Source: Lachnoclostridium sp. An118 | GTDB taxonomy: Bacteria; Bacillota; Clostridia; Lachnospirales; Lachnospiraceae | Reading direction: 5' to 3' | Length of the DNA: 33,740 bases | Assembly (NCBI RefSeq): GCF_002160985.1 | Contig: NZ_NFLQ01000027.1 | Coordinates: forward strand, 1-33,740 | In this document: positions 3,334 through 33,595 of the stretch, one piece after another | Layout of the letters: each line of letters starts with the position of its first letter | Numbering within the stretch: position 1 is the first letter of the stretch | Translations under genes and position numbers: made by a program | Notes under the pieces: generated by a model | What the model was told of the DNA's origin: nothing | Databases searched by the model: none | Seen by the model: only the letters and a program-made list of their open reading frames with translations

Positions 3334-3379
3334 ATCAAAGCTCACCTCTTTGTCTCTCTGTCTGAAATCCATATATTTA

Positions 3380-3402: not shown

Positions 3403-3405
3403 AAT

Positions 3406-3434
3406 AATATAATCCAAAACTATAGAAGCGTCAA
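3406..3434 (-). promoter_or_regulatory. Promoter of the Clp ATPase gene
   Basis: Read on the minus strand, TTGACG (3434-3429) and TATATT (3411-3406) are separated by 17 bases, a good sigma-A promoter. It starts transcription upstream of the ATG at 3333 but downstream of the longer alternative start, which supports the shorter protein. No clear CtsR heptad repeat was seen. Confidence 0.7.
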
Positions 3435-3469
3435 TGTTTTTGAGGTTTTTTATACTTTTTTTAGATTTT

Positions 3470-3498
3470 TTGCAGGCCTCAACTCCGCATATTATTAT
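3470..3498 (+). promoter_or_regulatory. Possible promoter of the MFS gene
   Basis: TTGCAG (3470-3475) and TATTAT (3493-3498) are spaced by 17 bases and point toward the MFS gene at 3584. A second TTGACA at 3523-3528 has no well-spaced -10 box. Confidence 0.45.
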
Positions 3499-3583
3499 AG
3501 AGAGGACGCCGACAAGCCCCTGTTGACAGATCCTTTCTAAAGGGAGTAGGCTTATTAATGGCTGATACAAGGAGGAACATTCC

Positions 3584-4768: not shown

Positions 4769-4784
4769 GCGCTTTGCAGGCCGC

Positions 4785-5534: not shown

Positions 5535-5806
5535 CCTTGCAGGACTCCTTTCTTTTTCTCTCGATACCTATATTTTAGCTCCGCTCTCTCGCCGGTGTCT
5601 AATACCTTTCCCGTATCCTTTTCCATGCCCGGGCGGCATTTTCCCGGGAGGGGCAGGCCGGGCTGTTCTTCTGCTTGTCCTTGCAGGGAAAAGGAAATAT
5701 CAGAAATACCAGATCACCGTGAGATAAATGACTGCCATACACAAATATGCGTGAATGTGTTACACTTTTATCTGTAAGAAAGATCACGCAAAAGGAGAGA
5801 TGCACC

Positions 5807-6277
5807 ATGAGAGTACGTATGGCAGGAGAAAAAGATATAGAGAGGATCCACAGCCTGCTGGCCCAGGTGGCCATGGTCCACCACAAGGGACGGCCGGACC
5901 TCTTCAAATACGGCAAGAGCAAGTACACGGATGAGGAGCTGAAGGAAATCTTAAAAGATAAAAACCGTCCCATCCTGGCCGCCGTGGACGACAGCGACTG
6001 TCTCCAGGGCTACGCCTTCTGCATCTTCCAGCAGTACAAGGACAGCAATATCATGACCGACATCAGGACCCTCTACATCGACGACCTCTGCGTGGAGGAG
6101 ACCCGGCGGGGCGAGCATATAGGAAAGACGCTCTACAATGCGGTCCTCGACTTTGCCAGGGAGCACGGATGCTACAACGTGACCCTGAACGTCTGGAGCT
6201 GCAATGAGAGCGCCATGAAATTCTACCGTTCCTGCGGCCTTCATGAGCAGAAGGTAGGAATGGAAGTCATCTTATAG
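5807..6277 (+). CDS. GNAT family N-acetyltransferase
   Basis: A 156-residue acetyltransferase of the GNAT superfamily, which transfers an acetyl group from acetyl-CoA to an amine. The central strand LYIDDLCVEETRRGEHIGKTLYN has the acetyl-CoA-binding pattern (R/Q-x-x-G-x-G/A, here R-R-G-E-H-I-G-K). The C-terminal part shows the family's N-x-S-A-x-x-F-Y-x-x-x-G-F/L element as NESAMKFYRSCGL. The start at 5807 was chosen over one 20 codons upstream because AAAGGAG (5791-5797) lies at the right distance. An extended -10 box TGTTACACT is near 5758-5766. The stop overlaps the convergent symporter gene by six bases. The substrate is unknown. Confidence 0.88.
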   Translation: MRVRMAGEKDIERIHSLLAQVAMVHHKGRPDLFKYGKSKYTDEELKEILKDKNRPILAAVDDSDCLQGYAFCIFQQYKDSNIMTDIRTLYIDDLCVEETRRGEHIGKTLYNAVLDFAREHGCYNVTLNVWSCNESAMKFYRSCGLHEQKVGMEVIL

Positions 6278-7696: not shown

Positions 7697-7729
7697 TTTT
7701 CTGTTTCCTTTCTTTTTTCCTGTCCCACC

Positions 7730-7758
7730 AGTATATAGCGAAAATTTGCCCCTGTAAA
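7730..7758 (-). promoter_or_regulatory. Promoter of the AGCS symporter gene
   Basis: On the minus strand, TTTACA (7758-7753) and TATACT (7735-7730) are separated by 17 bases. This lies about 35 bases upstream of the start codon, and AAAGGAAA serves as ribosome-binding site. Confidence 0.65.
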
Positions 7759-7810
7759 GCGAAAAAGTAAAATTAGCGGGAATCGGGGAAAAAAGAGTGC
7801 GCCGGGGGAA

Positions 7811-7846
7811 ACAAAGAGCCGGGGGCTGCGATATGCTCCCCGGCTC
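7811..7846 (-). terminator. Terminator downstream of the xpaC-telA operon
   Basis: On the minus strand GAGCCGGGG (7846-7838) pairs with CCCCGGCTC (7824-7816) and is followed by TTTGTTT. The stem is GC-rich and lies about 55 bases after the telA-family stop codon. Confidence 0.7.
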
Positions 7847-7901
7847 CTTCTCGCTCTCTATCTATTTTCTGCCCTGTATTTATTTTTCTACTGCATCCGC
7901 T

Positions 7902-9023
7902 CTAGCTCCGGATTTCCAAAAGCTTGGCCTTCAGGTCTCCCTCCAGGCGTCCGATCTCCGCCTCCGCGGCGCGCCGCTTCTCCCGGCCCTCCTGCTGTAT
8001 CTTCATCACCTCGTCCAGGGTGGAGATGAGGGCCTCGTTGGTCGTCTTCAGCGTCTCCATGTCCACAATACCCCGCTCCGACTCCCGGGCAGACTCTATG
8101 GTGGCCATCTTCAGCCGCTCCGCATTCTTCTTCAGCAGCTCGTTCGTCATGTCCGTCACCTCCCGCTGGGCCTGGGCCGCCTGGGCGGAGTGCTCCACTC
8201 CCAGGGCCAGCACCATCTGGCTCTTCCAGAGGGGCACTGTGTTGACAATGGTGGACTGTATCTTCTCCACCATCTGGGTGTCGTTGTTCTGGACAAGGCG
8301 GATCTGGGGCGCTGTCTGGATGGCTATCATCCTTGTCAGCTCCAGGTCGTGGACCTTCTTCTCAAACCGCTCGCACATGGACTCCAGGTCCCTGGCCGCC
8401 TGGATGTCCTCCGCAAGCCCGGTTGCGTTGGCCTTCTGCACAAGGGCCGGGAGCTGGACGTTCCTGGTATCCTCCAGCTTCTTTTTTCCCGCCGCGATGT
8501 AGATGGACAGCTCTCTGAAATACTCCAGGTTCTGTCCATACATCTTGTCCAGTATGGCAGCGTCCTTCAAAAGCTGTCTCTGGTAGCCCTCCAGCGTCTC
8601 GCATATCCTGGAAATGTTGGCCTCCGCCTTCTCGTACCTGGCCTTCAGCGCTGTCACCTTGTTGGCGCTCTTCTTGAAAAAGCCGAAGAAGCCCTTTGTC
8701 TCCTCCTCGTCAAAATCCCGCAGTTCTGTCACCACGCCGGACAGCAGGTCTCCGATCTCTCCCAGGTCCTTTGTGCGCACATTTTCCAGCGCCTTCTCGG
8801 AGAAATCCGCCATCTTCTTCTGCACGCCGGCTCCGTACTGGAGCACAGCCCCGGAGTCGTACAGATCGATCTGCCGGGCATACTCTGCCGCCATCTTTTT
8901 CTCCTCTTCTGTGAGGACCGTATCCTGGGCACTGCCCTGCACCTCCCCCTGGCCCGCACCTGCAAAGGGATCTTCCGGAGCCCCCATTCCCTGTCCTGTG
9001 GTCATTGTAAATCCGTCGCTCAT
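7902..9023 (-). CDS. Toxic anion resistance (TelA/KlaA) family protein
   Basis: A 373-residue, largely helical cytoplasmic protein of the TelA family (YaaN in Bacillus subtilis). Recognisable parts are the central helices around YEKAEANISRICETLEGYQRQLLKD and the conserved stretch IQTAPQIRLVQNNDTQMVEKIQSTIVNTVPLWKSQM at about residues 235-270. Family members were first linked to tellurite resistance, but many chromosomal copies act in envelope stress, and their biochemical activity is not settled. The first 40 residues are low-complexity. The start codon is three bases after the xpaC stop, and AAAGGAA lies inside the end of xpaC, so the two are co-transcribed. The same pairing is found in B. 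subtilis. Confidence 0.9.
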   Translation of the reverse strand: MSDGFTMTTGQGMGAPEDPFAGAGQGEVQGSAQDTVLTEEEKKMAAEYARQIDLYDSGAVLQYGAGVQKKMADFSEKALENVRTKDLGEIGDLLSGVVTELRDFDEEETKGFFGFFKKSANKVTALKARYEKAEANISRICETLEGYQRQLLKDAAILDKMYGQNLEYFRELSIYIAAGKKKLEDTRNVQLPALVQKANATGLAEDIQAARDLESMCERFEKKVHDLELTRMIAIQTAPQIRLVQNNDTQMVEKIQSTIVNTVPLWKSQMVLALGVEHSAQAAQAQREVTDMTNELLKKNAERLKMATIESARESERGIVDMETLKTTNEALISTLDEVMKIQQEGREKRRAAEAEIGRLEGDLKAKLLEIRS

Positions 9024-9026
9024 AGT

Positions 9027-10331
9027 CTATTCCTTTCTCTTCCATCCGTCTTCTGTCAGACCCTCCTGGGCCAGCATGGTCTCCAGCACGGAGATGTCTG
9101 AGCTGATATCCCAGGCCACATCCTCAAAGAGGCTGTCCAGAAGCTTTTCAAATGCTATATTCAACGTGTCCAGTGTCTTCTCGATCTCTTCCTTTGCCTG
9201 GCGGATGTTCTCACCCGCCTCAGGCTGGGCATCCAGCTGCTCATAGGCCTCCAGGAGCTTGACCGTGGTGGGCAGATAGTACTCCATCAGCTTTTTGATG
9301 TCGTCCACCGCGTCCGGGTCCGCCTCCACCCGGTCGAAAATGCGGCGCACCAGAAGCTCGATGCGGTCTATCTTCCGGGAAATCTCCACACCGGGAATGG
9401 CGTCATTGCACTCCCGTATCTTATCCACATACCATCTTCCCTTCTCGATGACCCGCTGCACCTCCGGCGTATGTCCGGAGGCCCCGCTGTCCTGTCCGTC
9501 CTGCCGTCCGCTCTGCTGTCCCTCCTTCTGCCGCTCTGTCTCCATCTGCTGCTGTTCCCGGCGGAGCTGCTGGATCCTTCTGTACTCCTCATAGGCCGCG
9601 TCCGTCACCATGAGGCAGGCTCCCTGCTCGTCCATGTGCCCCTGGAGGAACCACCGGTCCGCTATCATCCTCCGCAGGTCCTTTACGATCCTTTTGGGCT
9701 TCTCTCCGGTCCTCTGGGCAATGTCGGATATATTGCAGTAGGCCCGTCCCTGCAGCGCCTCCACATATCCGCGGAACCGTTTTGCCCGGCCTCTCATGCC
9801 CTTTCCCTTGCAGGCCATCCAGATACCGGCGGCCGCCAGGCAGGCCAGCACGAAGAAGGCGCCCGCCTCAGCCCCTCCAAAGCCGGTCACAAGGGTGGCC
9901 GCCGCGCCGGCGATAGCCGTGCATACGCAGGAGAAGGTAAAGAAAACTCCCACTGCCAGCAGCACCGCCCCTGCCAGGGCTGTCCCCCCTTTTCTGGCAA
10001 ACAGGACCGGCGGCTTCGTCCGCCTCTGCCTCATCTGCCTTCCCGCAAATCCACCGTTCCCCTGGCCCGTCTGATATCCCTGGCCTTCCCAGGAGCCCCG
10101 GGGACCGCCAAAGCCGCCAGGATCCCCGAAACTGCCAGGGCCCTCAGGCCCCATGCCCGGTCCCGGGCCGGGTCCCCCCGGCCCGCGGCGGATATTTTCC
10201 CGCAGATTAAAAATGGCATCATTGACTGTGTTTGAAATTGTTTCATTCAGCTTCTGAAAATCCTGGGAGTCCACTGCATCCTGCACGATATCCCGGATGT
10301 CCCGGCCCCATCTTTCCCAATCCTGGTTCAC
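9027..10331 (-). CDS. xpaC: XpaC-like protein (5-bromo-4-chloroindolyl phosphate hydrolysis family), membrane-associated
   Basis: A 434-residue protein. After an amphipathic N-terminal helix comes a Gly/Pro-rich segment (about residues 48-80), then two or three hydrophobic segments (about 115-170, with LAGAVLLAVGVFFTF and FFVLACLAAAGIW), a winged-helix-like segment (NISDIAQRTGEKPKRIVKDLRRMI region), a Gln-rich linker, and a C-terminal helical XpaC domain (about 280-430). XpaC was named for hydrolysis of a chromogenic phosphate, but its physiological role is unclear. GTG at 10331 is preferred to a TTG ten codons upstream because AGGAGG sits six bases before it. It is the first gene of the operon with the TelA-family gene. 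Confidence 0.82.
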   Translation of the reverse strand: MNQDWERWGRDIRDIVQDAVDSQDFQKLNETISNTVNDAIFNLRENIRRGPGGPGPGPGMGPEGPGSFGDPGGFGGPRGSWEGQGYQTGQGNGGFAGRQMRQRRTKPPVLFARKGGTALAGAVLLAVGVFFTFSCVCTAIAGAAATLVTGFGGAEAGAFFVLACLAAAGIWMACKGKGMRGRAKRFRGYVEALQGRAYCNISDIAQRTGEKPKRIVKDLRRMIADRWFLQGHMDEQGACLMVTDAAYEEYRRIQQLRREQQQMETERQKEGQQSGRQDGQDSGASGHTPEVQRVIEKGRWYVDKIRECNDAIPGVEISRKIDRIELLVRRIFDRVEADPDAVDDIKKLMEYYLPTTVKLLEAYEQLDAQPEAGENIRQAKEEIEKTLDTLNIAFEKLLDSLFEDVAWDISSDISVLETMLAQEGLTEDGWKRKE

Positions 10332-10418
10332 CTGTATCCTCCTGTTCTCCCCGCGCCTCAAAAGGCCTGAGCAGCCTTTCCCGGGAAGATCATGCTCTTG
10401 ATCTTACGCTATGTGAAA

Positions 10419-17050: not shown

Positions 17051-18244
17051 TTACTCGATGATCGTAGCAACACGGCCTGATCCTACTGTACGTCCGCCTT
17101 CACGGATAGCGAAACGAAGACCCTGCTCCATAGCTACCGGGTGGATCAGCTCGATCGTCATCTCTACGTTGTCACCAGGCATGCACATCTCTGTTCCCTC
17201 GGGAAGCTCGCAAACACCTGTAACGTCTGTTGTTCTGAAGTAGAACTGAGGACGATAGTTGTTGAAGAACGGAGTATGACGTCCACCCTCGTCCTTTGTC
17301 AGAACGTATACCTGAGCTGTAAATTTGTGATGGCATGTAACTGAACCGGGTTTGCAAAGAACCTGACCTCTCTCGATCTCTGTTCTCTGAACACCACGGA
17401 GAAGAGCACCGATGTTGTCACCAGCCTGAGCCTCGTCAAGCAGCTTACGGAACATCTCAACACCAGTTACAACTGTCTTCTTTGTATCCTCGTGGATACC
17501 AACGATTTCAACCTCGTCAGATACGTGAAGTGTACCACGCTCTACTCTACCAGTAGCAACTGTTCCACGACCTGTGATGGAGAATACGTCCTCTACAGGC
17601 ATAAGGAACGGCTTATCTGTGTCACGCTGCGGATCCGGGATGTAGGAATCTACTGCATCCATCAGCTCCATAACCTTGTCGCCCCACTCTCCGTCCGGAT
17701 CTTCCAGAGCCTTCAGAGCAGAACCCTGGATGATCGGTGTGTCATCTCCCGGGAACTCGTACTCGTCAAGCAGCTCACGGATCTCCATCTCAACCAGCTC
17801 AAGGAGCTCCTCATCGTCAACCATGTCACATTTGTTCATGAATACAACGATGTAAGGAACGCCTACCTGACGGGACAGAAGGATGTGCTCTCTTGTCTGA
17901 GCCATAACACCATCTGTAGCAGCAACTACGAGGATAGCGCCGTCCATCTGAGCTGCACCAGTGATCATGTTCTTAACGTAGTCAGCATGTCCCGGGCAGT
18001 CAACGTGTGCGTAGTGACGCTTCTCTGTCTCATACTCAACGTGAGCTGTGGAGATCGTGATTCCACGCTCTCTCTCTTCGGGTGCCTTGTCGATGTTGTC
18101 GAAGGCAACCTCTGCGTTACCAGCTACTCTTTTGGAAAGAACCTTTGTGATAGCTGCTGTAAGTGTTGTTTTACCATGGTCAACGTGGCCGATGGTACCA
18201 ATATTACAATGTGGTTTTGTTCTTTCAAATTTAGCTTTTGCCAT
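17051..18244 (-). CDS. tuf: Elongation factor Tu
   Basis: A 397-residue translation GTPase that delivers aminoacyl-tRNA to the ribosome. G1 is GHVDHGKT, switch-region [14 protein letters not shown]3 DCPGHADY, and G4 NKCD; the domain 2 and 3 sequences run to the usual GRVATIIE end. Full length and apparently intact. AAGGAGG precedes the ATG, and a separate promoter lies in the gap after fusA. Codon choice is biased toward a small set, as expected for a highly expressed gene. Confidence 0.99.
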
Positions 18245-18268
18245 TTTGAATATCCTCCTTATTCAAGC

Positions 18269-18280
18269 GCCCTTCTGGGC
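18269..18280 (-). other. Small hairpin in the tuf leader
   Basis: GCCC-TTCT-GGGC on the plus strand gives a 4-bp GC hairpin in the tuf mRNA leader, about ten bases upstream of the AAGGAGG ribosome-binding site. Confidence 0.3.
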
Positions 18281-18318
18281 ATTTTTCATAATTTTATCAG
18301 TTTACTCGGCTATTTCTG

Positions 18319-18347
18319 ATTATATTTCATATCCCCTTGTTTTTCAA
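18319..18347 (-). promoter_or_regulatory. Separate promoter for tuf
   Basis: On the minus strand TTGAAA (18347-18342) and TATAAT (18324-18319) are separated by 17 bases in the 141-base gap between fusA and tuf. tuf can therefore be transcribed more than the genes upstream in the operon. Confidence 0.75.
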
Positions 18348-18385
18348 GCCTTTTTCACACTTTTTTAGCTCAAAACAGGCGGAAA

Positions 18386-20503
18386 TTAATCATTCTTTCC
18401 GGATAACACTTTTTCCTGCACTGATTTCGGAACAGGTTTGTAGCTCTCAAAGAACATGGAGTAGTTTCCACGGCCCTGTGTTCTGGAACGAAGGTCCGTA
18501 GAGTATCCGAACATCTCGGAAAGCGGCACGTGCGCGCGCACGATCTTTCCTCCGCCCAGGTCATCCATACCCTCGATCTGGCCACGGCGTGAGTTCAGGT
18601 CACCGATGATGTCTCCCATGTACTCCTCGGGCATGGTCACTTCCACCTTCATGATAGGCTCAAGAAGTACCGGAGCGGCCTTCTTCATAGCATCCTTGAA
18701 TGCGAGAGAGCCTGCAATGTGGAATGCCATCTCACTGGAGTCTACCTCGTGGTAGGATCCGTCGTACACGGTAGCATGGATGCCGACAACCGGGAATCCG
18801 CCAAGGATACCGGACTTCATGGCCTCCTCGATACCCTCGCCTACAGCCGGGATGTATTCCTTCGGGATCGCTCCGCCGACTACAGTGGACTCGAACTTGT
18901 ATGTCTCCTCACCGTTGACATCCATGGGCTCGAATTTCACTTTACAGTGTCCGTACTGTCCACGTCCACCAGACTGCTTTGCGTACTTGCTGTCCACGTC
19001 AACAGCCTTTGTAAACGCCTCCTTGTAAGCAACCTGAGGTGCGCCTACATTGGCCTCAACCTTGAACTCGCGGAGCAGACGGTCTACGATGATCTCCAGA
19101 TGGAGCTCTCCCATACCGGCGATGATCGTCTGTCCTGTCTCGGAATCTGTATGAGCGCGGAATGTGGGGTCCTCCTCCGCAAGCTTTGCGAGAGACTCGC
19201 CGAGCTTGCCCTGGGAAGCCTTTGTCTTGGGCTCGATAGCCAGCTCGATAACCGGCTCCGGGAACTCCATGGACTCAAGGATGACCGGGTGCTGCTCGTC
19301 ACAGATCGTGTCTCCTGTTGTGGAGAACTTAAATCCGATAGCAGCCGCGATATCTCCGGAGTAAACCTTATCCAGCTCCTGTCTCTTGTTGGCGTGCATC
19401 TGAAGGATACGTCCCACACGCTCCTTCTTATCCTTTGTAGCATTCAGCACATAGGAACCGGAGTTTACAGTTCCCGAGTAAACTCTGAAGTAAGCGAGCT
19501 TACCTACGAACGGGTCTGTCATGATCTTGAATACGAGAGCGGAGAACGGCTCTTCATCAGAGGAATGTCTCTCCACTTCGTTTCCGTCCTCATCCACGCC
19601 CTTGATGGCGGGGATGTCTGTCGGTGCAGGCATATACTCAAGGATCGCATCCAGGAGCTTCTGAACACCCTTGTTCCTGTAAGCAGAACCGCAGCATACC
19701 GGAACTGCTGTACACTCGCATGTTGCCTTCCGCAGGACAGCCTTCAGGGCATCGATGGACGGCTCATCGCCCTCCAGATACTCCATCATCAGGTCGTCGT
19801 CCAGCTCACAGATCTTTTCAACAAGCTCTGTGTGATAGAGCTCTGCGTCGTCCTTCATATCGTCCGGGATATCTGTGACAGAAATGTCATCGCCCTTCTC
19901 ATCGTTGTAGATGTAGGCCTTCATTTCCATCAGGTCGATGATCCCCTTGAATTCATCTTCCTTGCCGATAGGCAGCTGGAGACAGATGGCGTTTTTGCCA
20001 AGTCTTGTCTTGATCTGCTCTACGGCATTGTAGAAGTCAGCACCTAAAATGTCCATCTTGTTGATGAACGCCATACGAGGCACGTTGTATGTGTCAGCCT
20101 GACGCCATACGTTCTCTGACTGAGGCTCTACACCACCCTTTGCACAGAACACGCCCACGGCACCGTCAAGTACACGGAGTGAACGCTCAACCTCTACCGT
20201 GAAGTCTACGTGACCCGGAGTATCAATGATGTTGATACGATGCTCCAAAGCGCCCTTTTTCGGCTTTGTGAACTCTTCCAGAGTCCAGTGGCATGTGGTA
20301 GCGGCTGAAGTGATCGTGATACCCCTCTCCTGCTCCTGCTCCATCCAGTCCATGGTCGCAGTACCCTCGTGAGTATCACCAATTTTGTAGTTAACACCAG
20401 TATAATACAGGATACGCTCTGTCAGTGTCGTTTTACCGGCATCGATATGAGCCATGATACCAATATTCCTGGTTCTCTCCAATGGATATTCTCTTCCAGC
20501 CAA
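18386..20503 (-). CDS. fusA: Elongation factor G
   Basis: A 705-residue translocation GTPase. G1 is [12 protein letters not shown], the switch contains [12 protein letters not shown]3 is DTPGHVDF and G4 NKMD; the later domains are complete through the Arg/Gly-containing end ([13 protein letters not shown] and [13 protein letters not shown]). The start codon is TTG at 20503 (M-A-G-R-E-Y), with AGGAGGAG six bases upstream, 15 bases after the rpsG stop. It lies in the standard str-operon position. Confidence 0.98.
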
Positions 20504-24388: not shown

Positions 24389-27300
24389 TCAACGCATCTC
24401 TTTCCCAATCTCCACCATAACCTCCCCTCGGTTGTCACTATATCCGCTCCCATAGAGACCATACAGATCATCATTGGCAGTCAGAAACAGAGGTCCTCTT
24501 CCTTTTGGAAGCACAGCCTTCCTTCCGATGCGGAAGCTTTCTCCATTGCCAATCCGCCCCACCAGACAGCCTTCCGATTCTCCCGGGCATGCGTATCCTG
24601 GCTTTGCGATAATCCCTATGCCCTCCGGTCCATAATTCGCCTTATGGCATGGAGGATTTACGTTCCAAAGCCCGCTCACATATTGGGCCGTCACGACCTC
24701 GTCCTCTTCAATCTGTACTCCGGTATCATTCCAGATTACCCGGGCCGACACCTCAACCGTAGTGGGATACAGGATACCCAGTACTTTTTCTACATTCTCC
24801 TCCGGAAACGCCTTGCTTAAAATGACCGCCATTTCTTCCCTAGTAGTCCCTGGATAAATCCTCTCATTCAAAATGATCCCCCCCACAGTGACAGCCCTGT
24901 GATCGGCAAGAATCTCCTTCAGGTCCAGAGCAAGCTCTGCCGCAGTTCTTCCCGCCTCTTTCAAAATTGCAGCCACATCTACAGGGTCATAAACAACGAG
25001 CAGCTCTGACAGAGCTCTCCGCCACTCCAGCTCTGTCAGCTGTCCTTTTTTCTTTTGTTCTGCGAACTGTGTAATCTGCATTTTTAAATCCATGCTCTTT
25101 TCCTCCTTTTGGATTGCTTTAAGCAGCAGCCCCTCGGTATCCTCCATCGTTATTTGAGGCCTCCTCTCCCGCAGTGCCTGAACAGTCTCCTCCTCCCCAT
25201 ATCCCTTTCTCCACATGCAGATCAAAAGCTCTCCGGAAGAAAGGTGGGGAAAAGCAGTGTCCAAATGCTCCAGGCAAACCCGGGCGCTGTCCTGATTTAT
25301 ATAGTGTTCGCGGGCCACTTCCTCCTTGTCCGCCGGGTGCAGATACTTCTCCAGAACCATTTTCATAGCGCCGGATTCCTCCAGCTCTATCTTATGCTCC
25401 CTAAGCAGCTGCAGACAGTCACGAACGCAAAGGCCGCTCTGTACGCTCCAGGAGATGAGCTCCTGATGAGTAACTTCACCCAGATAATTCCCTTCACTCC
25501 AGGGGCTGCTCCTCTCCTTCTTTTCATGAAGCGCTCGGACCGCCAGATACGCCTTACCCTTTACGAGGATTTCCAGGAAAGAGATTCGGGGTGGTTCTTC
25601 TTCCGCTTTCCAGGACAGGAAACGATCCGCCCGACTCGGTCCATTCCACATAATGTCCAGCTCATAACCAGAGGCGCCTTCCACCTGCCAAATCTCTATC
25701 CGCAGTTTCGCTCCATCAAGCTTCCCTCTGAATTTCGGACAGGGCAAGGGCTGAGCAGGATCATTTTTCCCGCCGCCTGAGAGAACCATAAAGACAGCTG
25801 CCATCCCAGCAAATCCGGCTGCCATCCAATCTCCGGTCTCACTGAAGGAAAAGGCTGTACCGCCGCCAGCGGCAAAGATGGAGAATCCAGTCTCAGACAC
25901 ACCGCCGCCGCTTTCTCCCCCTCCACCTTCTCCGCCACTGCCTCCAGCCGTACCACTGTCGCCGCCGCTTTCTCCGCCACCGCCAGAGGGATCGTCCGGA
26001 AGAAGTCTGGCCGCTTCCTCCTGGCTGACCAGCTTTCGGCACAGCAGCCCGGATACATAGGCCTCCAGCTCATCCCTGGCAAGAACAGCCAGCACTGCCT
26101 CCAGCTCCTGAAAATTATTTTTGTCAAACACTGATTGCACGATCTGGTCCACGGTCTCCTGCAGCTTTTCGCAGCTATTGGCCTTTCCCAAAATCTCCAG
26201 ATATTCCCGCATCCTTTTCAGGAAGTCAAATGCCTCGCCTGCATAGGACAGGGAATCTATATCCTCCAGCCGAAAGCCGGTCTTCTTATCATAGATAACC
26301 GTCAGGTGCTCGCCGAACACCGTCCTCAAAACTCCCTCCGGCCAAAGCTCCGCACGGACACTCCAGTCCTCCTTTCCCCCGCTGTACCAGAAGCTACCTC
26401 CCAACAGACGCTCTACGAAAAAGGTAAGCTCTCCCTCTATCTCCATACTCTTCCCCTGCGCCCTGTCTCCCTTTTTGTACTGGTAGGAGAAAGCAGGTCC
26501 TTTCTCTCCCTGGCGCCCCGCAATCTGCAGTATCTCCAGATCCAGCACGCTTCCTGCCTGAAGAGAGAAACGGAATGTATCTGAGGAAAGCTCTACTTCT
26601 CCCCAGAGCTCCAGGCTGACTACAAGAGTCAGCACGGTATGCAGCCGCAGGCTGTACGTCTTTTCTGCGCTTTCGCCGTTTTCTGACGATCCATCCGCCA
26701 TAGTACAGGACAGACTGCTCCCCTTCAGAATCTCCAGGTCAAAAAGGGGCTCCCCGCTCTGCCCAATCTCAAAAATCTGCGCTAACAGACTGTCAAGAGA
26801 AAGGTCCGTTTCCAGCGTCAGCTCCATCTGCCAACAGGTCTGCTTTTCTCCGCTGGCATAGGAGAGCCCTCCCTTCCACTTCTGTCCGGCCAGACAAGCC
26901 TCGGCCTCCAGATAGCAGCGCTTCTCCTCCCGGTGCCCTTCAGACGCGTAGGCACACTCCAGATGAAAGATCAATTGGTCCAGCTGCAGACTTCCGGCGC
27001 TTCCCAGCGCAAAAACCGGGGTATCCCCGTTCTCCAGGGCTGACATTTCCGCCCTGTATCCCCTCTCGTCCATCCGGATCTCTCCCTGAAATCCAAGACT
27101 GAAGTTCTCTACAGACAGCTCCACCTCCCCGGACAGAGCCAATCGGCTCTTCTTCTCTGCAATCTGATACAGCAGCCGCACATTCCGGAAAACAACTGCG
27201 TAAAAAAGTTCAATCTCAGGAAGCCCGGCATAGTAAAGCTGATCCCATATCGATCCCCGCTTCTCCAGGCAGCCCAGTATGACCAGCCTCTGCGCCCCAT

Positions 27301-27718
27301 GATATCCGATCTTCAGAGCCCCTGAAAATACGCTTAGCTTCTTAAGCTCCGAAACCATCCACAAGCAGATCCCTTTCTCCATATACCCCCGCTTCTCCCG
27401 CAGCAGTCCGGAAAGCTCGCCGGGCAGCTCGGGATCCGCCGGGAAAAGGGCGCCCGCTGATGGGGCCGTCTCCCCCTGACTGCAGTGGGAACAGATGAGA
27501 CCGGCGCTTTCCAGACAGCAGCCCGCAAAATAATCCCCGGCGCTCTCATCCGCAAGGTTTGTAAGAGAGGCCTCTGCATCGACAGAGTCTTCTCTAAGTC
27601 TCAGATAAAAAGACTGCCGGGCTGTATTGCCCTGAAGCCCCACCTCCAGCGGCCACTCCTTTGTCCCTTTTGCCAGTCTGCCTGCCCGCAGGCAGACTGA
27701 CAGATTTACTTCCCACAT
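24389..27718 (-). CDS. Large multidomain protein ending in a LecA (PA-IL)-like domain
   Basis: An 1109-residue protein of unknown role. Residues about 1-500 are beta-rich with several repeat-like segments (for example around 190-225, 240-305, 355-400 and 425-480). A helical region is followed by a Gly/Ser/Glu linker (576-607), a hydrophobic Gly/Ala-rich stretch (611-650), an Fn3-like segment (about 655-742), helical repeats (about 745-985) and a C-terminal domain (990-1106). That domain matches the LecA fold: VIWNDTGVQIEEDE, a central Tyr/Trp, GRIGNGESFRIG, and FLTANDDLYG ... DNRGEVMVEIG. LecA binds galactose with Ca2+; binding here is untested. No signal peptide. ATG is preceded only by a weak AGGA. 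It lies 14 bases after the 123-residue gene. Confidence 0.8.
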   Translation of the reverse strand: MWEVNLSVCLRAGRLAKGTKEWPLEVGLQGNTARQSFYLRLREDSVDAEASLTNLADESAGDYFAGCCLESAGLICSHCSQGETAPSAGALFPADPELPGELSGLLREKRGYMEKGICLWMVSELKKLSVFSGALKIGYHGAQRLVILGCLEKRGSIWDQLYYAGLPEIELFYAVVFRNVRLLYQIAEKKSRLALSGEVELSVENFSLGFQGEIRMDERGYRAEMSALENGDTPVFALGSAGSLQLDQLIFHLECAYASEGHREEKRCYLEAEACLAGQKWKGGLSYASGEKQTCWQMELTLETDLSLDSLLAQIFEIGQSGEPLFDLEILKGSSLSCTMADGSSENGESAEKTYSLRLHTVLTLVVSLELWGEVELSSDTFRFSLQAGSVLDLEILQIAGRQGEKGPAFSYQYKKGDRAQGKSMEIEGELTFFVERLLGGSFWYSGGKEDWSVRAELWPEGVLRTVFGEHLTVIYDKKTGFRLEDIDSLSYAGEAFDFLKRMREYLEILGKANSCEKLQETVDQIVQSVFDKNNFQELEAVLAVLARDELEAYVSGLLCRKLVSQEEAARLLPDDPSGGGGESGGDSGTAGGSGGEGGGGESGGGVSETGFSIFAAGGGTAFSFSETGDWMAAGFAGMAAVFMVLSGGGKNDPAQPLPCPKFRGKLDGAKLRIEIWQVEGASGYELDIMWNGPSRADRFLSWKAEEEPPRISFLEILVKGKAYLAVRALHEKKERSSPWSEGNYLGEVTHQELISWSVQSGLCVRDCLQLLREHKIELEESGAMKMVLEKYLHPADKEEVAREHYINQDSARVCLEHLDTAFPHLSSGELLICMWRKGYGEEETVQALRERRPQITMEDTEGLLLKAIQKEEKSMDLKMQITQFAEQKKKGQLTELEWRRALSELLVVYDPVDVAAILKEAGRTAAELALDLKEILADHRAVTVGGIILNERIYPGTTREEMAVILSKAFPEENVEKVLGILYPTTVEVSARVIWNDTGVQIEEDEVVTAQYVSGLWNVNPPCHKANYGPEGIGIIAKPGYACPGESEGCLVGRIGNGESFRIGRKAVLPKGRGPLFLTANDDLYGLYGSGYSDNRGEVMVEIGKEMR

Positions 27719-28183: not shown

Positions 28184-28222
28184 GGCAGAATAAAAAGGCG
28201 TAGCTACGCCTTTTATCCTGCC
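28184..28222. terminator. Terminator between the defence-like operon and the LecA-domain operon
   Basis: A GGCAG/CTGCC outer stem (28184-28188 and 28218-28222) encloses the 22-base palindrome AAAAGGCGTAGCTACGCC plus TTTT (28193-28214). A/T runs flank the GC core, so it can terminate on either strand. Confidence 0.75.
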
Positions 28223-28296: not shown

Positions 28297-28953
28297 CTAT
28301 TCAATATTGGATTCAGAATCTACGCTTTGAGAAAGCACTCTGTTCCCTTTATATGCAGCGCGAAATACTTTTACCTTTTTCACATATTCTCTGGCCAATT
28401 TGCCAGCCGCCAACTCAAGCAATCTCTTACGTTCAGGATCTTTTTCTCTTTCAATTGCTGTTTCAAGCCGCTCACACATTTTTTCCAGTCTTTCAAGCAG
28501 CCACCCGAGATTATGTATAGGACGGTATAATTTCAGCATTTTGATCATCTCTCGTCCCTTCGGATCATCCGAATCAATTCCGCCAAGCTCATTGCGATAA
28601 AAAATTGTATTATAATCCGTGTACACTGGATTATAAAATAATTCATTTTCTATTCGGGAACTGCTTTCTATATCTCCTTTATATTTATCTCCCTTGGACA
28701 AATTGCACTTAGGACAGGACCACATAAGATTTTCGTAATCCGTTTTCAAATAGTCCTTTTTGTTCTTAAATATTTTCTCTGGTATAAAGTGTTCCACATG
28801 GTATGGCACTGCCACAAGATTTTCATCCATATTACAATAACAACACCTGCAATGGAAGTCTCGTTTCAGGTATTTTACATATTTTCTTGGTTTATCAAAC
28901 TGTACTGTACAGGTTCTCGTTATCTTATGCTCTTTAAAATCTGCATATTTCAT
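28297..28953 (-). CDS. HNH endonuclease family protein
   Basis: A 218-residue protein. A zinc-binding pair of CxxC knuckles (C37-x2-C40 and C80-x2-C83) brackets the HNH core: HVEHFIPEK (His55), YENLMW (Asn75), and CNLSKGDK (Asn84). The C-terminal half is helical, with a Leu/Arg/Glu-rich coiled-coil-like segment. HNH enzymes cut DNA with a single metal ion and are common in restriction and defence systems. Its start is four bases after the stop of the receiver gene, and it is last in the operon, ahead of a terminator. The substrate is not known. Confidence 0.85.
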   Translation of the reverse strand: MKYADFKEHKITRTCTVQFDKPRKYVKYLKRDFHCRCCYCNMDENLVAVPYHVEHFIPEKIFKNKKDYLKTDYENLMWSCPKCNLSKGDKYKGDIESSSRIENELFYNPVYTDYNTIFYRNELGGIDSDDPKGREMIKMLKLYRPIHNLGWLLERLEKMCERLETAIEREKDPERKRLLELAAGKLAREYVKKVKVFRAAYKGNRVLSQSVDSESNIE

Positions 28954-28957
28954 TTAA

Positions 28958-29614
28958 TCATCCTAACAATTCTTCGTACTTTTTTAACTGTTGAAAAACA
29001 TCCTTAATTTCATCCATATCCAAACCAGTGTCTACTGTCGTCTGATACAACTGTTTATATCGCCCCAGTTCCGTCTCAATTTCCATAATCCGTTCCAGGG
29101 CCTTCTCGTCTTCACTGTCCTTGTCCAGCTTCTGAAGTTCTACGGCAAGGTTTTCTTCCAGAGTTTCTCGGCGTGTTACATATTTCTGCATATTGAGAAT
29201 TATATTTCTCACAAGTTCTTTGGTCTCCTCAAGTTCGGGATTCAAAAATATTTTTTTAGGATATACCTTATCTGCATCAGTGTGCTCAGACTGTTTGCTC
29301 TCTTCCGGCGCATTTGTCATAATAACAACAGGAAATTCGGGAATTTCGTCGTGCATAAACTCAATAATCTGCCAGCCTTTAATGACATCTGCCGTCGTAT
29401 CAAGACGGAAATCCACTATCAAAGCCTGGATATTTTTTTCATCTATATCGTCCTGTATTTCCTGTAAGATATCTTCCCTCTTACGCCCTTCCAACTCATA
29501 CTCTTTAAACTCAATTTCCGGTTTGTCCAGGATCCATCCGGCATTGTCCAAAATAGATACCTGAATATCGTCCCGTTCGTCTTTTTCATCGTCTATAATC
29601 CCTATTCGATACAT
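28958..29614 (-). CDS. Response-regulator receiver protein without a DNA-binding output
   Basis: A 218-residue protein. The N-terminal receiver domain (about 1-130) has the acidic pair Asp8-Asp9 in IIDDEKDE, the phosphoacceptor Asp68 in LIVDFRLD, Thr100 in VVIMTNAP, and Lys120 in VYPKKIF, so it should be phosphorylatable. The rest (about 130-218) is helical and looks coiled-coil-like; no winged helix or other known output is seen. The ATG shares a base with the kinase stop (TAATG), and AAGGAGG precedes it. The upstream protein carries a histidine-kinase-like module and is the likely partner. Confidence 0.85.
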   Translation of the reverse strand: MYRIGIIDDEKDERDDIQVSILDNAGWILDKPEIEFKEYELEGRKREDILQEIQDDIDEKNIQALIVDFRLDTTADVIKGWQIIEFMHDEIPEFPVVIMTNAPEESKQSEHTDADKVYPKKIFLNPELEETKELVRNIILNMQKYVTRRETLEENLAVELQKLDKDSEDEKALERIMEIETELGRYKQLYQTTVDTGLDMDEIKDVFQQLKKYEELLG

Positions 29615-32094
29615 TATACCCTCCTTTCCGGCTTTCTCCATTCTATTTTCAAGCCGAAGCCATCTGTTTTATCCATAACAGAAATAATTCCGTTATTTCT
29701 TTCTACCGTTTCTCTTACAATCCAAAGGCCCAGCCCTGTCCCTTTTCCCTTTTTTGAAGTTTCTCCTATTTCAAAAATTTTATCCGGATTATCGCGAAAC
29801 ATATCCGCAAGAGGCGGACCATTATTTTCCATAGTCAGAACCACCCTATCTGTTGTGCTTTCTATTTCAAAAGCCACCTTCCTTTCAGGGTTATGTGTCT
29901 GTTCAAGGAACCATGCCGCATTTAATATAAAATTATTCAGGATGATATACATATCTACCAGAGCAATCGAGACTGTATCATCCGACTCCTCCCCCGACGG
30001 TTCTACGCTAACGGAAATATGCTTCTTCGCCAAAATTATTTTCCACTTTTCCAGAATAGTCGTCACCATCTTTTCCAGGGAAATTTCCTGCGCTTTTAAA
30101 CTGTCTTTTTGCAATCCTTCCATAATCACATCCAAGAAAGCGGCAATAAGCATATCATTCTTTTCCAGACTATCAATTCTGTTGTATGGATTGTATGCAG
30201 GAAGACCTTCATATTCTTTCCCCTTTAATATATAGTTTACTCTGCTTCGTATCTGGGAAGCCTGGACATGAAACTGAGTGTTGATCGCATTAAACTCGTG
30301 AAAAAAAGTATTCATCAGTATTCCTGATGCGCTCAGAATCTGAAGCATCTGTTTACCGTTCAACGCCTGTTCAGTTTCCTGCATCAGCTTGTATACCGTT
30401 CCAAACATCTCGTCTTGCGTAAATTCACTGTCAGTCTTCTTTTCATGTTCCGTTTCGCGCCGTATTGCCTCTTCTTTAATCTTCTCCGCGTAGTCTGACA
30501 ATTCATCTTCTATAGATTTGATCCATTTGGTATACTCTCTGTATATATACTGTCTGTCAAATTCAAACTCCTTGAGACATTCCTGCAACAAACTGATAAA
30601 AATATAGTATGTATCTGTCAGCGCAAGCCCTTCACGGTTGGCCATATCCTCCAGATTCGGATTGGTTTCACGTCCAATCTTCACCAGACCAATCATCTGA
30701 TAAGGCTGTACACGCCACGAACCTGTTGGATGTGCCACAGACGCCGGGCTCTTCTGCGCACGTGCCCCCATTTCCAGCCAGTCATACATTGCGCCATCAT
30801 CACCGTATGGCCGGACTTTAAAGTCATCCCTATACAATTTTATCCCTGAAAACTGCTCCAGCAATCTCTTTCTTTTTCTGACCGCCACCTTCTTCATTAT
30901 TGCATAGTCATTGTTTGCGTTTCTAAGAAAATACATCTCTGCAGTAAACGGGCCCACTTTCTGTATTTTTTCCAGTCGGTCAGAGGGTAAAATATCCGTC
31001 ACTCTCTTTTCAATCAACAGCTCTTTCGCATAATCAGATTTCCGGTAATGCTGTTTCTGCAACTTCTCTCTTGACCAGAATTCATCTGTCGATTTTGTGG
31101 CTACTGACCCGTATTTTTCCACCGTCACTTTTTTTACAGACAAGTCAATTTCATTACGGAGAAGCCGAATCTTCAACAGCTCATCCCCATCATATTCCCC
31201 ATATATTCTGTAGTCATAATCATCATTATCTATAGCTACCTTCTCTGTTTTAAAACTAAATTTCGGCAAAAGAACATTTCTAACAATTACTTCAAATCTG
31301 TCCGCACTTCCGATAGGGTTGATACTCTTAAGATTCGTATTTACTTTCCTAAAAAGGCGCTCACTCCAGGCCTCTCTGATCGGGCTCAAAATAATCACAG
31401 TACCTGTTGACCAATCATGCTCCTCTAAAAGAGCATTATCCTCTCCCATGATCCCTCTTACTATACTTTTATATTCGGTATATTCCGTCTCCAGATCCGC
31501 TTTTACATCACTGATCAACGTCGCATCGGCAAACTGTTCCCAGTCCATACCCCATCGGACAGTTTCAGCGCTGTCTGTCGATTTCGTATACATAATCGAT
31601 TTCATAGACAATTTATCAAGAGCAAATCTTCCTATACCTTTTGCCCCCGTTTTGACCCGTCCCTTGGCAGACATGATATTATTTTCTTTATTGCTCGTAC
31701 CAATATACATCCATGCAGATCTGACGACATCTTCCGTCATTCCAGTCCCATTATCTGCAACTATAATTTTATTATGAGCGAACAAGATATCTTTTAATCC
31801 GTTTTGCAGCTTATCCGGTAAATTCTGCTTTTTAATCCAGGTAATTCCTTTTATCTCATAACATTCTCTGACAAACCGCAGTTCCTTTTCCGATAAATAT
31901 TCCGCAAAATGTGTGACTTTCGCTTTATCAGGAACATCTGGAAACGGCATATAAAAATCCACATAAACACAGGTGGCATCTGCATCATAGGAGTTTTTTA
32001 TCAACTCGATTAAAGCCCCGTCCACATCTGCTATGTTTTCACGGCCAATCAGCCTTGCCGCTTTAGCACCGACCTGAAATTCTACCTTTTGCAT
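29614..32094 (-). CDS. Double-GHKL ATPase: MutL/Hsp90-like N terminus and histidine-kinase-like C terminus
   Basis: An 826-residue protein with two ATP-binding modules of the GHKL class. The N-terminal one has ALIELIKNSYDADA (N-box, Asn34), VADNGTGM (114-119) and TGAKGIGRFA (149-158), like MutL, Hsp90 and MORC ATPases. After about 400 residues a helical region carries an H-box, FFHEFNAI (His599). It is followed by a second catalytic module with ILNAAWF (720s), MENNGPP (about 757) and KGKGTGLGLWIV (about 784-792), like histidine kinases. The domain order suggests that ATP binding by the first module controls phosphotransfer. It is five bases after the methyltransferase gene and coupled to the receiver gene. 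No membrane segment or known sensor is seen. Confidence 0.85.
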   Translation of the reverse strand: MQKVEFQVGAKAARLIGRENIADVDGALIELIKNSYDADATCVYVDFYMPFPDVPDKAKVTHFAEYLSEKELRFVRECYEIKGITWIKKQNLPDKLQNGLKDILFAHNKIIVADNGTGMTEDVVRSAWMYIGTSNKENNIMSAKGRVKTGAKGIGRFALDKLSMKSIMYTKSTDSAETVRWGMDWEQFADATLISDVKADLETEYTEYKSIVRGIMGEDNALLEEHDWSTGTVIILSPIREAWSERLFRKVNTNLKSINPIGSADRFEVIVRNVLLPKFSFKTEKVAIDNDDYDYRIYGEYDGDELLKIRLLRNEIDLSVKKVTVEKYGSVATKSTDEFWSREKLQKQHYRKSDYAKELLIEKRVTDILPSDRLEKIQKVGPFTAEMYFLRNANNDYAIMKKVAVRKRKRLLEQFSGIKLYRDDFKVRPYGDDGAMYDWLEMGARAQKSPASVAHPTGSWRVQPYQMIGLVKIGRETNPNLEDMANREGLALTDTYYIFISLLQECLKEFEFDRQYIYREYTKWIKSIEDELSDYAEKIKEEAIRRETEHEKKTDSEFTQDEMFGTVYKLMQETEQALNGKQMLQILSASGILMNTFFHEFNAINTQFHVQASQIRSRVNYILKGKEYEGLPAYNPYNRIDSLEKNDMLIAAFLDVIMEGLQKDSLKAQEISLEKMVTTILEKWKIILAKKHISVSVEPSGEESDDTVSIALVDMYIILNNFILNAAWFLEQTHNPERKVAFEIESTTDRVVLTMENNGPPLADMFRDNPDKIFEIGETSKKGKGTGLGLWIVRETVERNNGIISVMDKTDGFGLKIEWRKPERRV

Positions 32095-32099
32095 TTACC

Positions 32100-33536
32100 T
32101 CACCACTTTTCTTCAAAGACATAGTTGGCAATATCCCGCGGACTTACACGATATGTTTTTCCATTTGCATGTATCCCGACCGCCTGGATATATCTATAAA
32201 ACTCCTCGCTGTCCAGCACCTGTTCTGCCTGCTCAATGGTGTACCCGTCCTTCGGCACAATATACATTCCCGAATACGGAACTGTATATTTATCAAGATG
32301 ATAATACTTAACTTTACCTGTGATCAGAGTAGACAACATCAACTTTTCCTGGTTAATATGAGCCAATGCCTGTGACCGGCCAAATTCAAACCACTTACTT
32401 TTTTTATCCGCTTTTCTCTCGGACAATTTCTGCGCATATTGCGTCAGGTAACCGGTAATCTGCGGATAAAGCTTCACAAATTGTCCTTCCTCATAACGGC
32501 AAAGTTTGTTGCTTTCATAATAATACGGAAAAATAATATAATTTTTTTCTTTATACTGCATGCTCTTAGGACTTGCCGCCGGACGAAGCCCACTCTTTTC
32601 CAGTCTGAACCCGTCCTTCTCAATCCATTTTTCATTTTCTTTGAAATCTTTTATGACAAAAACCTGATTCAATAATGTAGCAACAGGTGCCGAAACCTTA
32701 AAGCAGTCGCCAAATCTTTTTTTCTCTCCTATATGATCAAGCTCCCTATCCAGCACCCATTTTCCCTTAAGACTATTTTTGGATATATACGTATTATTTG
32801 TCTCTAAAGCTCCTGCCTTTTCCCTGTCTGTATACAAAAAGGTGGGAGAATTCTGCCTTTTCGAACATACAATAATGGCAGACGACGTCAGGCGTCCTTC
32901 AAAGATTCTCTCAAACTTAAAATCTTCCAGTTCTATTAAATATGGCAAGATGTATTTCCGCAATCCCTCAGAATATCTGTTTTTCATAAAATTGTTAGGA
33001 ATCAAATATGCCATCACTCCATCCGAAGCCAAAGCCTCAAGCGCAGCTTCTGTAAAGGCATAATAATAGTCTGCTTTTCCTCTTTTGCATGACTCATATC
33101 TGCTTTTTATCAATTTTCTGTCTTCCTCCGGCATATTATAGTATGTAATATAAGGAGGATTGCCAACCACAAACTGATATATCGGCTCTGTCTTCAGTGT
33201 TAATGCATCACTTAACCGGACATTCCACCTAACATCTCTTATTCCGAGCTGAGCCGCCATATTATCCAGATTATTCAAGCATTTGTCATATATATCTCTT
33301 TCTTTTTCAATGCCATGAACATCTCTTTCCAACCCTCTCTTGATCTCTTCGTCCGTTTTGCCGCTTTTTCGCGCATCTATTATATATCTCCTGGCGATTT
33401 CTCTTAAAAAGCGTCCGGTTCCGCAAGAGTTTTCAAGAATCTTTTTCCCATATAAATCATGTATATATCCAATTTTATCCAGCATGTAGCTGACAATTTC
33501 CGGAGGCGTAAATACTTTGCAGGTTGTCTCTCCCAT
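32100..33536 (-). CDS. N6-adenine DNA methyltransferase (Eco57I/type I-like N-6 DNA methylase)
   Basis: A 478-residue class I methyltransferase. Near the N terminus are KVFTPPEIV (motif X, typical of gamma-class enzymes) and ENSCGTGRFL (motif I, S-adenosylmethionine binding). The catalytic VVGNPPYI motif (126-129) fits N6-adenine methylation. The C-terminal third, around residues 300-460, is probably the target-recognition region and resembles Eco57I-type enzymes; no endonuclease domain is visible. It is the first gene of the AT-rich operon, with AAGGA and GAGG-like sequence upstream, and a clear promoter. The recognition sequence is unknown. Confidence 0.88.
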   Translation of the reverse strand: MGETTCKVFTPPEIVSYMLDKIGYIHDLYGKKILENSCGTGRFLREIARRYIIDARKSGKTDEEIKRGLERDVHGIEKERDIYDKCLNNLDNMAAQLGIRDVRWNVRLSDALTLKTEPIYQFVVGNPPYITYYNMPEEDRKLIKSRYESCKRGKADYYYAFTEAALEALASDGVMAYLIPNNFMKNRYSEGLRKYILPYLIELEDFKFERIFEGRLTSSAIIVCSKRQNSPTFLYTDREKAGALETNNTYISKNSLKGKWVLDRELDHIGEKKRFGDCFKVSAPVATLLNQVFVIKDFKENEKWIEKDGFRLEKSGLRPAASPKSMQYKEKNYIIFPYYYESNKLCRYEEGQFVKLYPQITGYLTQYAQKLSERKADKKSKWFEFGRSQALAHINQEKLMLSTLITGKVKYYHLDKYTVPYSGMYIVPKDGYTIEQAEQVLDSEEFYRYIQAVGIHANGKTYRVSPRDIANYVFEEKW

Positions 33537-33566
33537 AACCTCTTCATCCTTCTTGTGTTTACTCCA

Positions 33567-33595
33567 ATTTTATCACAATCAATTTTTCTTGTCAC
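33567..33595 (-). promoter_or_regulatory. Promoter of the methyltransferase/GHKL/receiver/HNH operon
   Basis: On the minus strand GTGACA (33595-33590) and TAAAAT (33572-33567) are separated by 17 bases, with an extended TG one base upstream of the -10. It lies about 30 bases before the first start codon. Confidence 0.65.

What the first reader, a model, noticed from the sequence alone, without database searches (positions are those of the whole stretch)
28297..33595. Candidate new defence system: DNA methyltransferase + double-GHKL ATPase/kinase + receiver + HNH nuclease
Four genes share one promoter and are spaced by 5, -1 and 4 bases, followed by a terminator. The proteins supply DNA modification, an ATP-driven sensor, a phosphorelay pair and a DNA nuclease. 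MutL/MORC-type GHKL ATPases are known components of some restriction-modification-like conflict systems, and a two-component-like defence system (Detocs) is known, but I do not know a system that combines this methyltransferase, a histidine-kinase-type module with receiver, and an HNH nuclease. The region is visibly richer in A+T than its neighbours, which fits horizontal transfer. A role in restricting phage or plasmids is inference.
Basis: partly seen in the sequence, partly recalled or inferred. Interest (0 to 1): 0.88.

Follow-up and report, generated by a model that had tools for sequence, protein, structure and literature searches.

The report
Methyltransferase operon with phosphorelay and nuclease
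A four-gene cassette in a gut bacterium joins a DNA-marking enzyme, a two-part phosphate signalling switch and a DNA-cutting enzyme; relatives of the four genes turn up together in other bacteria, so it is probably a restriction system whose cutter is switched by a signal, though this has not been tested.

Summary
Window 28297-33536 (- strand) encodes an N6-type DNA methyltransferase (MT), a double-GHKL histidine kinase (HK), a stand-alone receiver (RR) and an HNH nuclease in one compact operon. The module is conserved: in 397 genomes of the window's family the HK occurs in 14, each time followed by RR and HNH, with an MT adjacent in 13. In reverse, 12 of 13 HNH hits (397 genomes) and 10 of 10 MT hits (329 genomes) lie in these operons. 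Phosphorelay and nuclease residues are conserved. HK, RR and HNH evolve together; the MT has been exchanged between backbones. Best reading: a restriction-modification-like system gated by a phosphorelay; sensing, phosphate flow and control of HNH are inferred. The kind is not new: GHKL proteins in restriction-modification operons (2008), and kinase/receiver-like pairs beside such genes, some with HNH domains (2021), are published. The HNH type is a distinct branch. Defence function is untested.

The parts
32100..33536 (-). MT: N6-type DNA methyltransferase (Eco57I/N6_Mtase; best solved relatives are entry 7lni, an adenine-specific MT that I recall as CamA, then BseCI and TaqI)
   Evidence: Pfam, PDB profile search; NPPY at residues 126-129 invariant in 12 of 12 rows
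29614..32094 (-). HK: N-terminal HATPase_c_3 (MORC/MutL-like) GHKL ATPase, middle region, H-box with H599-E600, C-terminal HATPase_c
   Evidence: Pfam; H599, E600, N721, N725, D114, G116, G118 in 19 of 19 rows; AlphaFold model mean pLDDT 74.5, pTM 0.51; C-terminal half matches histidine kinase cores in the PDB
28958..29614 (-). RR: stand-alone receiver (D8, D9, D68, T100, K120) with a C-terminal helical extension and no recognised DNA-binding domain
   Evidence: D68 and T100 in 19 of 19, D or E at 8 and at 9 in 19 of 19, K or R at 120 in 19 of 19; model and Foldseek
28297..28953 (-). HNH nuclease, PtuB/TIGR02646-like, with C37, C40, H55, N75, C80, C83, N84, K87
   Evidence: Pfam HNH, PADLOC PtuA/PtuB-labelled models; residues invariant in 19 of 19
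33567..33595 (-). promoter-like site (extended -10) upstream of MT
   Evidence: consensus scan only, weak
28184..28222 (-). terminator-like hairpin after HNH
   Evidence: RNA fold -24.3 kcal/mol, z -4.57, 0 of 200 shuffles as stable; not listed by the consensus scan

Best explanation
A restriction-modification-like system whose cutting arm is gated by a phosphorelay. Steps: (1) MT methylates adenines in host DNA (chemistry inferred from family and intact motif). (2) The HK uses its N-terminal MutL/MORC-like ATPase as an intracellular sensor that engages invading or unmodified DNA (inferred). (3) This changes phosphate flow between HK H599 and RR D68 (residues shown, flow inferred). (4) The RR, which has no recognised output domain of its own, switches the HNH nuclease on or off by contact (inferred from constant linkage and co-evolution). 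(5) HNH cuts DNA, and the methyl mark protects the host (inferred). HK-RR-HNH is the fixed core; the MT is an exchangeable part that may act mainly through its mark on DNA.
For: HK followed by RR and HNH in 14 of 14 family genomes with the HK (397 searched). Reverse searches: HNH in 13 of 397 genomes, 12 inside these operons; the MT family in 10 of 329, 10 inside; HNH in 4 of 72,556 plasmid records, all 4 within about 1.1 kb of the HK. Across 37 HNH-type loci (HNH defines the set) HK-RR-HNH are collinear in 37 and an MT with NPPY/NPPF is adjacent in 34, of at least three types in two positions. Over 12 loci pairwise identities of HK track RR (0.835) and HNH (0.894) but not MT (0.092). AU tests: the MT tree rejects {window, L019, L020} (p 1e-13), which the HK and HNH trees support; the HK and HNH trees reject the MT clade {L019, L022, L023, L025, L026} (p 1e-87 and 3e-4). 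Relay and nuclease residues conserved in 19 of 19 rows. HNH-type HKs form one side of a branch (SH-aLRT 97, 54 rows).
Against: No activity is shown. Two loci (L003, L018) have no MT nearby and no close MT elsewhere in the genome (best 28% over about 105 aa in one, none at E<=0.001 in the other, which is 84% complete), so methylation may not be strictly required, or another MT serves. In the window's branch the kinase G1 box has N757 instead of D (8 of 18 scorable rows), so kinase chemistry may be altered. Exchange of MT without matching change in HK/HNH is awkward if HK or HNH reads the same specific site, unless the MTs share a target. The 50 Foldseek rows shown for the HK model are histidine kinases or kinase-containing proteins, so the sensor fold is not confirmed. 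RRs of L029 and L030 and HNH of L030 were not found by single-sequence search and are identified by position, alignment and motifs; the profiles were built with them.
Confidence: 0.55

Rival explanations
1. Abortive-infection type: the HK senses an infection cue (nucleotide state, DNA ends, stalled replication) rather than unmethylated sites; RR unleashes HNH, which cuts all DNA including the host's; MT only buffers toxicity or is partly dispensable.
For: MT-less loci L003 and L018 keep HK-RR-HNH. HNH resembles PtuB/TIGR02646 nucleases of Septu and retron systems. Related HK-RR pairs can have a different third gene, a metallo-beta-lactamase fold in 2 of 2 scanned.
Against: An MT is adjacent in 34 of 37 HNH-type loci, of several types, which suggests that marking DNA matters.
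Confidence: 0.25
2. Ordinary type II restriction-modification: HNH is a constitutive site-specific restriction enzyme and HK-RR only control expression or timing of the genes.
For: MT plus nuclease in one operon; some restriction-modification systems carry regulators (recalled).
Against: RR has no recognised DNA-binding domain and its C-terminus is modelled as helices. HNH stays with HK and RR while MT is swapped, unlike a site-matched MT/REase pair (inference).
Confidence: 0.1
3. An epigenetic regulatory or repair module, not defence: MT sets a regulatory methylation pattern and HK-RR-HNH process DNA damage or mismatches.
For: MT's best solved relative is entry 7lni, recalled as the orphan regulatory MT CamA; the HK N-terminus weakly matches MutL.
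Against: Sporadic distribution (14 of 397 family genomes; only the window's own among 398 phylum genomes); relatives on plasmids and viral contigs; defence-gene models beside some copies (4 of 7 hand-picked neighbours, 3 of 6 if only HNH-type loci are counted).
Confidence: 0.08

Closest known systems
HEF_HK / Response_reg_2 two-component-like pairs beside restriction-modification genes (Bellieny-Rabelo et al. 2021, PMC8011034)
   Same: Soluble HATPase_c_3 + H-box + HATPase_c kinase next to a receiver-like protein and DNA methyltransferases; paraMORC-like N-terminus; HNH domains among the neighbours (HNH_2 in seven genera).
   Different: There the MT is mostly cytosine-C5, often with Vsr, and the query receiver is 600 aa; here an N6-type MT, a 218-aa RR and an HNH gene fixed next to the RR. 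The window HK and RR do not match PF19191 or PF19192, but neither do the kinases and receivers of C5- or N4-type relatives that I scanned, so the models alone do not separate the two.
paraMORC families, especially paraMORC1 (Iyer et al. 2008, PMC2292703)
   Same: N-terminal GHKL ATPase with a C-terminal extension, restriction-modification operons, possible HNH neighbours (passages).
   Different: The word receiver does not occur in that text, and the proposed role is DNA looping. Sequence identity with paraMORC1 was not tested.
Septu / retron PtuAB
   Same: HNH matches PADLOC models labelled PtuA (8e-16) and PtuB (4.7e-14) and NCBIfam PtuB at 37 bits.
   Different: No P-loop ATPase in the operon; far below the PtuB cut-off of 150 bits. 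The one HNH hit outside these operons (G102) sits beside a P-loop ATPase (judged from its sequence).
Detocs (recalled, not tested)
   Same: Histidine kinase plus receiver in a defence operon.
   Different: The Detocs effector that I recall is a nucleoside phosphorylase-type enzyme, without an MT; here HNH plus MT.

Membership tests
HEF_HK/Response_reg_2 pair (PMC8011034) | Kinase architecture HATPase_c_3 + H-box + HATPase_c | tested here: met
   HATPase_c_3 and HATPase_c in 19 of 19; H599-E600 invariant in 19 of 19
HEF_HK/Response_reg_2 pair (PMC8011034) | HEF_HK domain model PF19191 | tested here: not met
   Not among the window HK's five families at E<=10, nor among the 25 of 32 families shown for 19 members. 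0 of 12 genomes or records over the cut-off, but also 0 of 14 control genomes over it, so one search has no positive control; the kinases of four C5- or N4-type relatives miss it too
HEF_HK/Response_reg_2 pair (PMC8011034) | Response_reg_2 domain model PF19192 | tested here: not met
   Not among the window RR's five families at E<=10, nor among the 25 of 31 families shown for 19 members; four long receivers of relatives miss it too
HEF_HK/Response_reg_2 pair (PMC8011034) | Adjacent DNA methyltransferase, mostly C5 | tested here: inconclusive
   An MT is adjacent but not C5 in 34 of 37 HNH-type loci; C5 MTs sit beside related long-receiver loci
Type II restriction-modification | MT and endonuclease genes in one operon | tested here: met
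   MT and HNH with intact motifs
Type II restriction-modification | Cleavage blocked by the cognate methylation | not testable with these tools
   needs biochemistry or methylome data
Septu (PtuAB) | PtuA ABC-type ATPase partner | tested here: not met
   No P-loop ATPase family among the Pfam matches of the four proteins; one PADLOC model labelled PtuA matches the HNH protein itself, over positions 35-237 of 726
Septu (PtuAB) | PtuB equivalog score | tested here: not met
   37.3 bits against a cut-off of 150
paraMORC1 (PMC2292703) | Sequence membership and S5 domain after the GHKL domain | not tested
   No paraMORC1 sequence was at hand; the S5 fold was not confirmed
Two-component system | Phosphoacceptor His and Asp, acid pocket, T/K, ATP-binding boxes | tested here: met
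   caveat: G1-box D replaced by N in the window's branch
Two-component system | Actual phosphotransfer | not testable with these tools
   needs in vitro assay
Detocs | Kinase, receiver and phosphorylase effector (recalled) | not tested
   No Detocs sequence was compared

The most novel reading that the evidence does not exclude
The HNH operon is one member of a large modular immune class in which a DNA methyltransferase, a MORC-like ATPase kinase and a receiver form the signalling chassis, while both the methyltransferase and the effector after the receiver are exchangeable (HNH nuclease, metallo-beta-lactamase-fold enzyme, possibly a caspase-like protease), so that two-component signalling gates killing or restriction in the way cyclic nucleotides do in CBASS.
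Probability: 0.35. Interest if true: 0.85.

Novelty: new variant of a known kind. Interest (0 to 1): 0.62.

Why it matters
If right, restriction would be wired through a phosphorelay: a MutL/MORC-type ATPase would report foreign DNA through His-Asp phosphate to a nuclease. That would link GHKL DNA-handling ATPases, two-component signalling and restriction in one testable operon, and would suggest a function for kinase/receiver-like pairs that the papers I read describe from gene neighbourhoods.

Tried and rejected
Chance neighbourhood: rejected by reciprocal searches. Transcriptional two-component system: disfavoured, since RR has no recognised DNA-binding domain. A nuclease fused to the longer receivers of sister loci: looked for by eye in the part of the printout that was shown and by Pfam in four: two have no family at E<=1, two show Response_reg and no nuclease; left open. 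Caspase-like third gene in L091, L100 and L104: only a by-eye His/Cys pattern (H67 and C102 invariant in 3 sequences); no Pfam hit in 3 of 3, no PDB hit for L104, and searches with the L104 and L100 kinases in viral contigs found only the query loci again, with the third genes nothing (one search had no positive control). HK in the phylum: 1 of 398 genomes, the window's own. Empty-site comparison: the neighbouring 1109-aa gene is found only in the own genome among 61, so it was not informative.

Literature searches behind the novelty statement: (a library of open-licence PMC papers, without bioRxiv preprints). Papers: PMC8011034 parts 1-5 of 7 read; PMC2292703, PMC13092281, PMC12839542 and PMC12137116 passages only; all others search listing and abstract starts only.

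Changes made on checking against the calls: hairpin start, number of long receivers scanned, the missing positive control, the HNH neighbours reported in 2021, and the weak PADLOC match of HK.
Full report
WHAT IS THERE. The window is G000 contig 20, 33,740 bases. On its - strand four genes run from 33536 to 28297 with spacings of 5, -1 and 4 bases: an N6-type DNA methyltransferase (MT), a kinase with two GHKL ATPase domains (HK), a stand-alone receiver (RR) and an HNH nuclease. Operon G+C is 39.8% against 54.5% for window 1-28296. A stable hairpin follows HNH; the promoter match is weak evidence.

PARTS AND ACTIVE SITES. In 19 operons (15 from the window's family including L003, 4 from plasmids) the HK keeps H599-E600 (H-box), N721 and N725 (N-box) and the N-terminal D114-x-G-x-G motif in 19 of 19; E30 and N34 of the N-terminal ATPase are kept in 18 of 19 (L033 differs, perhaps a start or alignment problem). 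The RR keeps D68 and T100 in 19 of 19, with D or E at 8 and 9 and K or R at 120. HNH keeps C37, C40, H55, N75, C80, C83, N84 and K87 in 19 of 19. MT keeps NPPY in 12 of 12. The HK profile matches solved histidine kinases in its C-terminal half and, weakly, HtpG, MutL, Hsp90 and MORC3 at the N-terminus. MT's best solved relatives are adenine methyltransferases (7lni, BseCI, TaqI). One point against a canonical kinase: N757 replaces the G1-box aspartate in 8 of 18 scorable rows, the window's own branch.

CONSERVED AS A UNIT. The HK was found in 14 of 397 family genomes at E<=1e-20, the window's included. RR and HNH follow it in 14 of 14 and an MT is adjacent in 13 of 14; in L029 and L030 the RRs, and in L030 the HNH, are recognised by position, alignment and motifs only. 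A further, named relative, Lachnospiraceae bacterium 3-1 (L003), has HK-RR-HNH without MT, as does L018. These two sit at the same place after what look like spoIIA/spoVA genes, and neither genome holds a close MT. Reverse searches do not start from the HK: HNH hits in 13 of 397 genomes, 12 inside these operons, the 13th beside what looks like a P-loop ATPase; MT hits in 10 of 329 genomes, all 10 inside; HNH hits in 4 of 72,556 plasmid records, all 4 within about 1.1 kb of the HK. The HK family is wider than the HNH type: 76 plasmid records hold an HK relative, of which I opened 7; 4 of the 7 carry HNH. Those 4 are from Bacteroides, Ensifer, Salipiger and Deinococcus; the reciprocal search adds Rhizobium by coordinates.

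VIRAL CONTIGS AND SISTER TYPES. A scan of viral contigs gave 90 relatives, of which 80 were kept. In 79 of 80 the HK was called; 18 are followed by RR and HNH. In a 96-row HK tree (FastTree) the 37 HNH rows fall in one group of 38, the 38th (L071) being cut at a contig end. In a second tree of 54 rows (34 HNH rows after dropping 3 near-copies, and 20 of the 59 others chosen by me, without L071) the HNH type is one side of a branch, SH-aLRT 97. Of the 59 other rows 49 have receivers of 300 aa or more; C5, N4/N6 and other methyltransferases stand beside many of them. Three have a third gene that looks like a metallo-beta-lactamase (2 scanned, both over the Pfam cut-off).

THE METHYLTRANSFERASE IS EXCHANGED. 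Over 12 operons, rank correlations of pairwise identity are 0.835 for HK-RR, 0.894 for HK-HNH and 0.866 for RR-HNH, but 0.092, 0.242 and 0.038 for MT against HK, RR and HNH. L019 has HK, RR and HNH 63-65% identical to the window's, but an MT 44% identical to the window's and 71% to that of L022. Trees confirm it: the MT tree rejects {window, L019, L020} (p-AU 1e-13), and the HK and HNH trees reject the MT clade {L019, L022, L023, L025, L026} (p-AU 1e-87 and 3e-4). These groups were named after seeing the identities, and L030 is a long branch. Across 37 HNH-type loci the MT is of the window's type upstream in 15, a type annotated N-6 DNA methylase in named plasmids downstream in 10, a roughly 420-aa type upstream in 8 (of 3 scanned, 1 is over Pfam's N6_Mtase cut-off and 2 under it), an Eco57I-annotated one upstream in 1 (L038), and absent (L003, L018) or beyond a contig end (L053) in 3.

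MECHANISM. HK, RR and HNH co-evolve as parts in contact would; MT can be replaced, so it may speak to the others mainly through its mark on DNA. RR has no recognised output domain, so its likeliest target is the fixed neighbour HNH. This gives a restriction-modification-like system gated by a phosphorelay. Shown: gene set, linkage, residues, co-evolution, MT exchange. Inferred: methylation target, what HK senses, direction of phosphate flow, control of HNH, DNA cutting, defence. Context fits defence but is thin: of 7 hand-picked neighbour proteins 4 match PADLOC models at E<=1e-5, one of these beside a C5-type relative.

KNOWN AND NEW. GHKL paraMORC proteins in restriction-modification operons, with possible HNH neighbours for one family, were reported in 2008 (PMC2292703, passages). 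A kinase/receiver-like pair beside restriction-modification genes, with HNH_2 as the best-represented endonuclease domain nearby, was reported in 2021 (PMC8011034, parts 1-5). Its domain models do not match the window's HK or RR, but they also miss the C5- and N4-type relatives scanned here, and one search had no positive control; the HNH type is set apart by the HK tree, the short RR and the fixed HNH gene, not by those models. PADLOC has no match for RR and one weak match for HK (E=0.0017). I found no description of this four-gene HNH type in the searches; the library lacks most subscription papers and bioRxiv preprints. Verdict: a real, well-defined new variant of a known kind, defence role likely but unproven.

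Noticed in passing
L083:9563-10585, L105:9724-10725 (and L110): In sister HK-RR loci on viral contigs the third gene is a metallo-beta-lactamase-fold protein in place of HNH (Pfam Lactamase_B over cut-off in the 2 scanned; L110 by position and length only).
   Followed up: partly
L091:9697-10302, L100:10106-10771, L104:9906-10559: Third genes with a His-Gly and later Cys pattern that looks caspase-like by eye; no database support.
   Followed up: partly
L034:4339-5496, L035:8150-9172, L036:8096-9169, and L115: Long receivers of sister loci share a C-terminal region with a P-x-C-D pattern and a YY-A/S-RQG-like end (seen by eye); no Pfam family over its cut-off in the three scanned.
   Followed up: no
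L003 and L018: The MT-less cassette sits at the same chromosomal place, after what look like spoIIA/spoVA genes, in two genomes, suggesting inheritance at, or repeated use of, one site.
   Followed up: partly
L026:11438-12946, L029:10385-11368, L032:3609-4709: Neighbours of HNH-type operons match PADLOC models (pAgo 6e-15, PDC-S05 7e-129, NsnB 3e-94).
   Followed up: partly
window 17051-20503: EF-Tu and EF-G genes lie in the same contig; the operons of L019 and L022 also lie near what look like EF-G/EF-Tu genes (judged by the first residues).
   Followed up: no
window 24389-27718: A 1109-aa protein with no Pfam family at E<=0.01 and no match at E<=1e-20 in 60 other genomes.
   Followed up: no
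window 685-10361: ClpB-type ATPase, TelA-family and Halogen_Hydrol-family genes.
   Followed up: no
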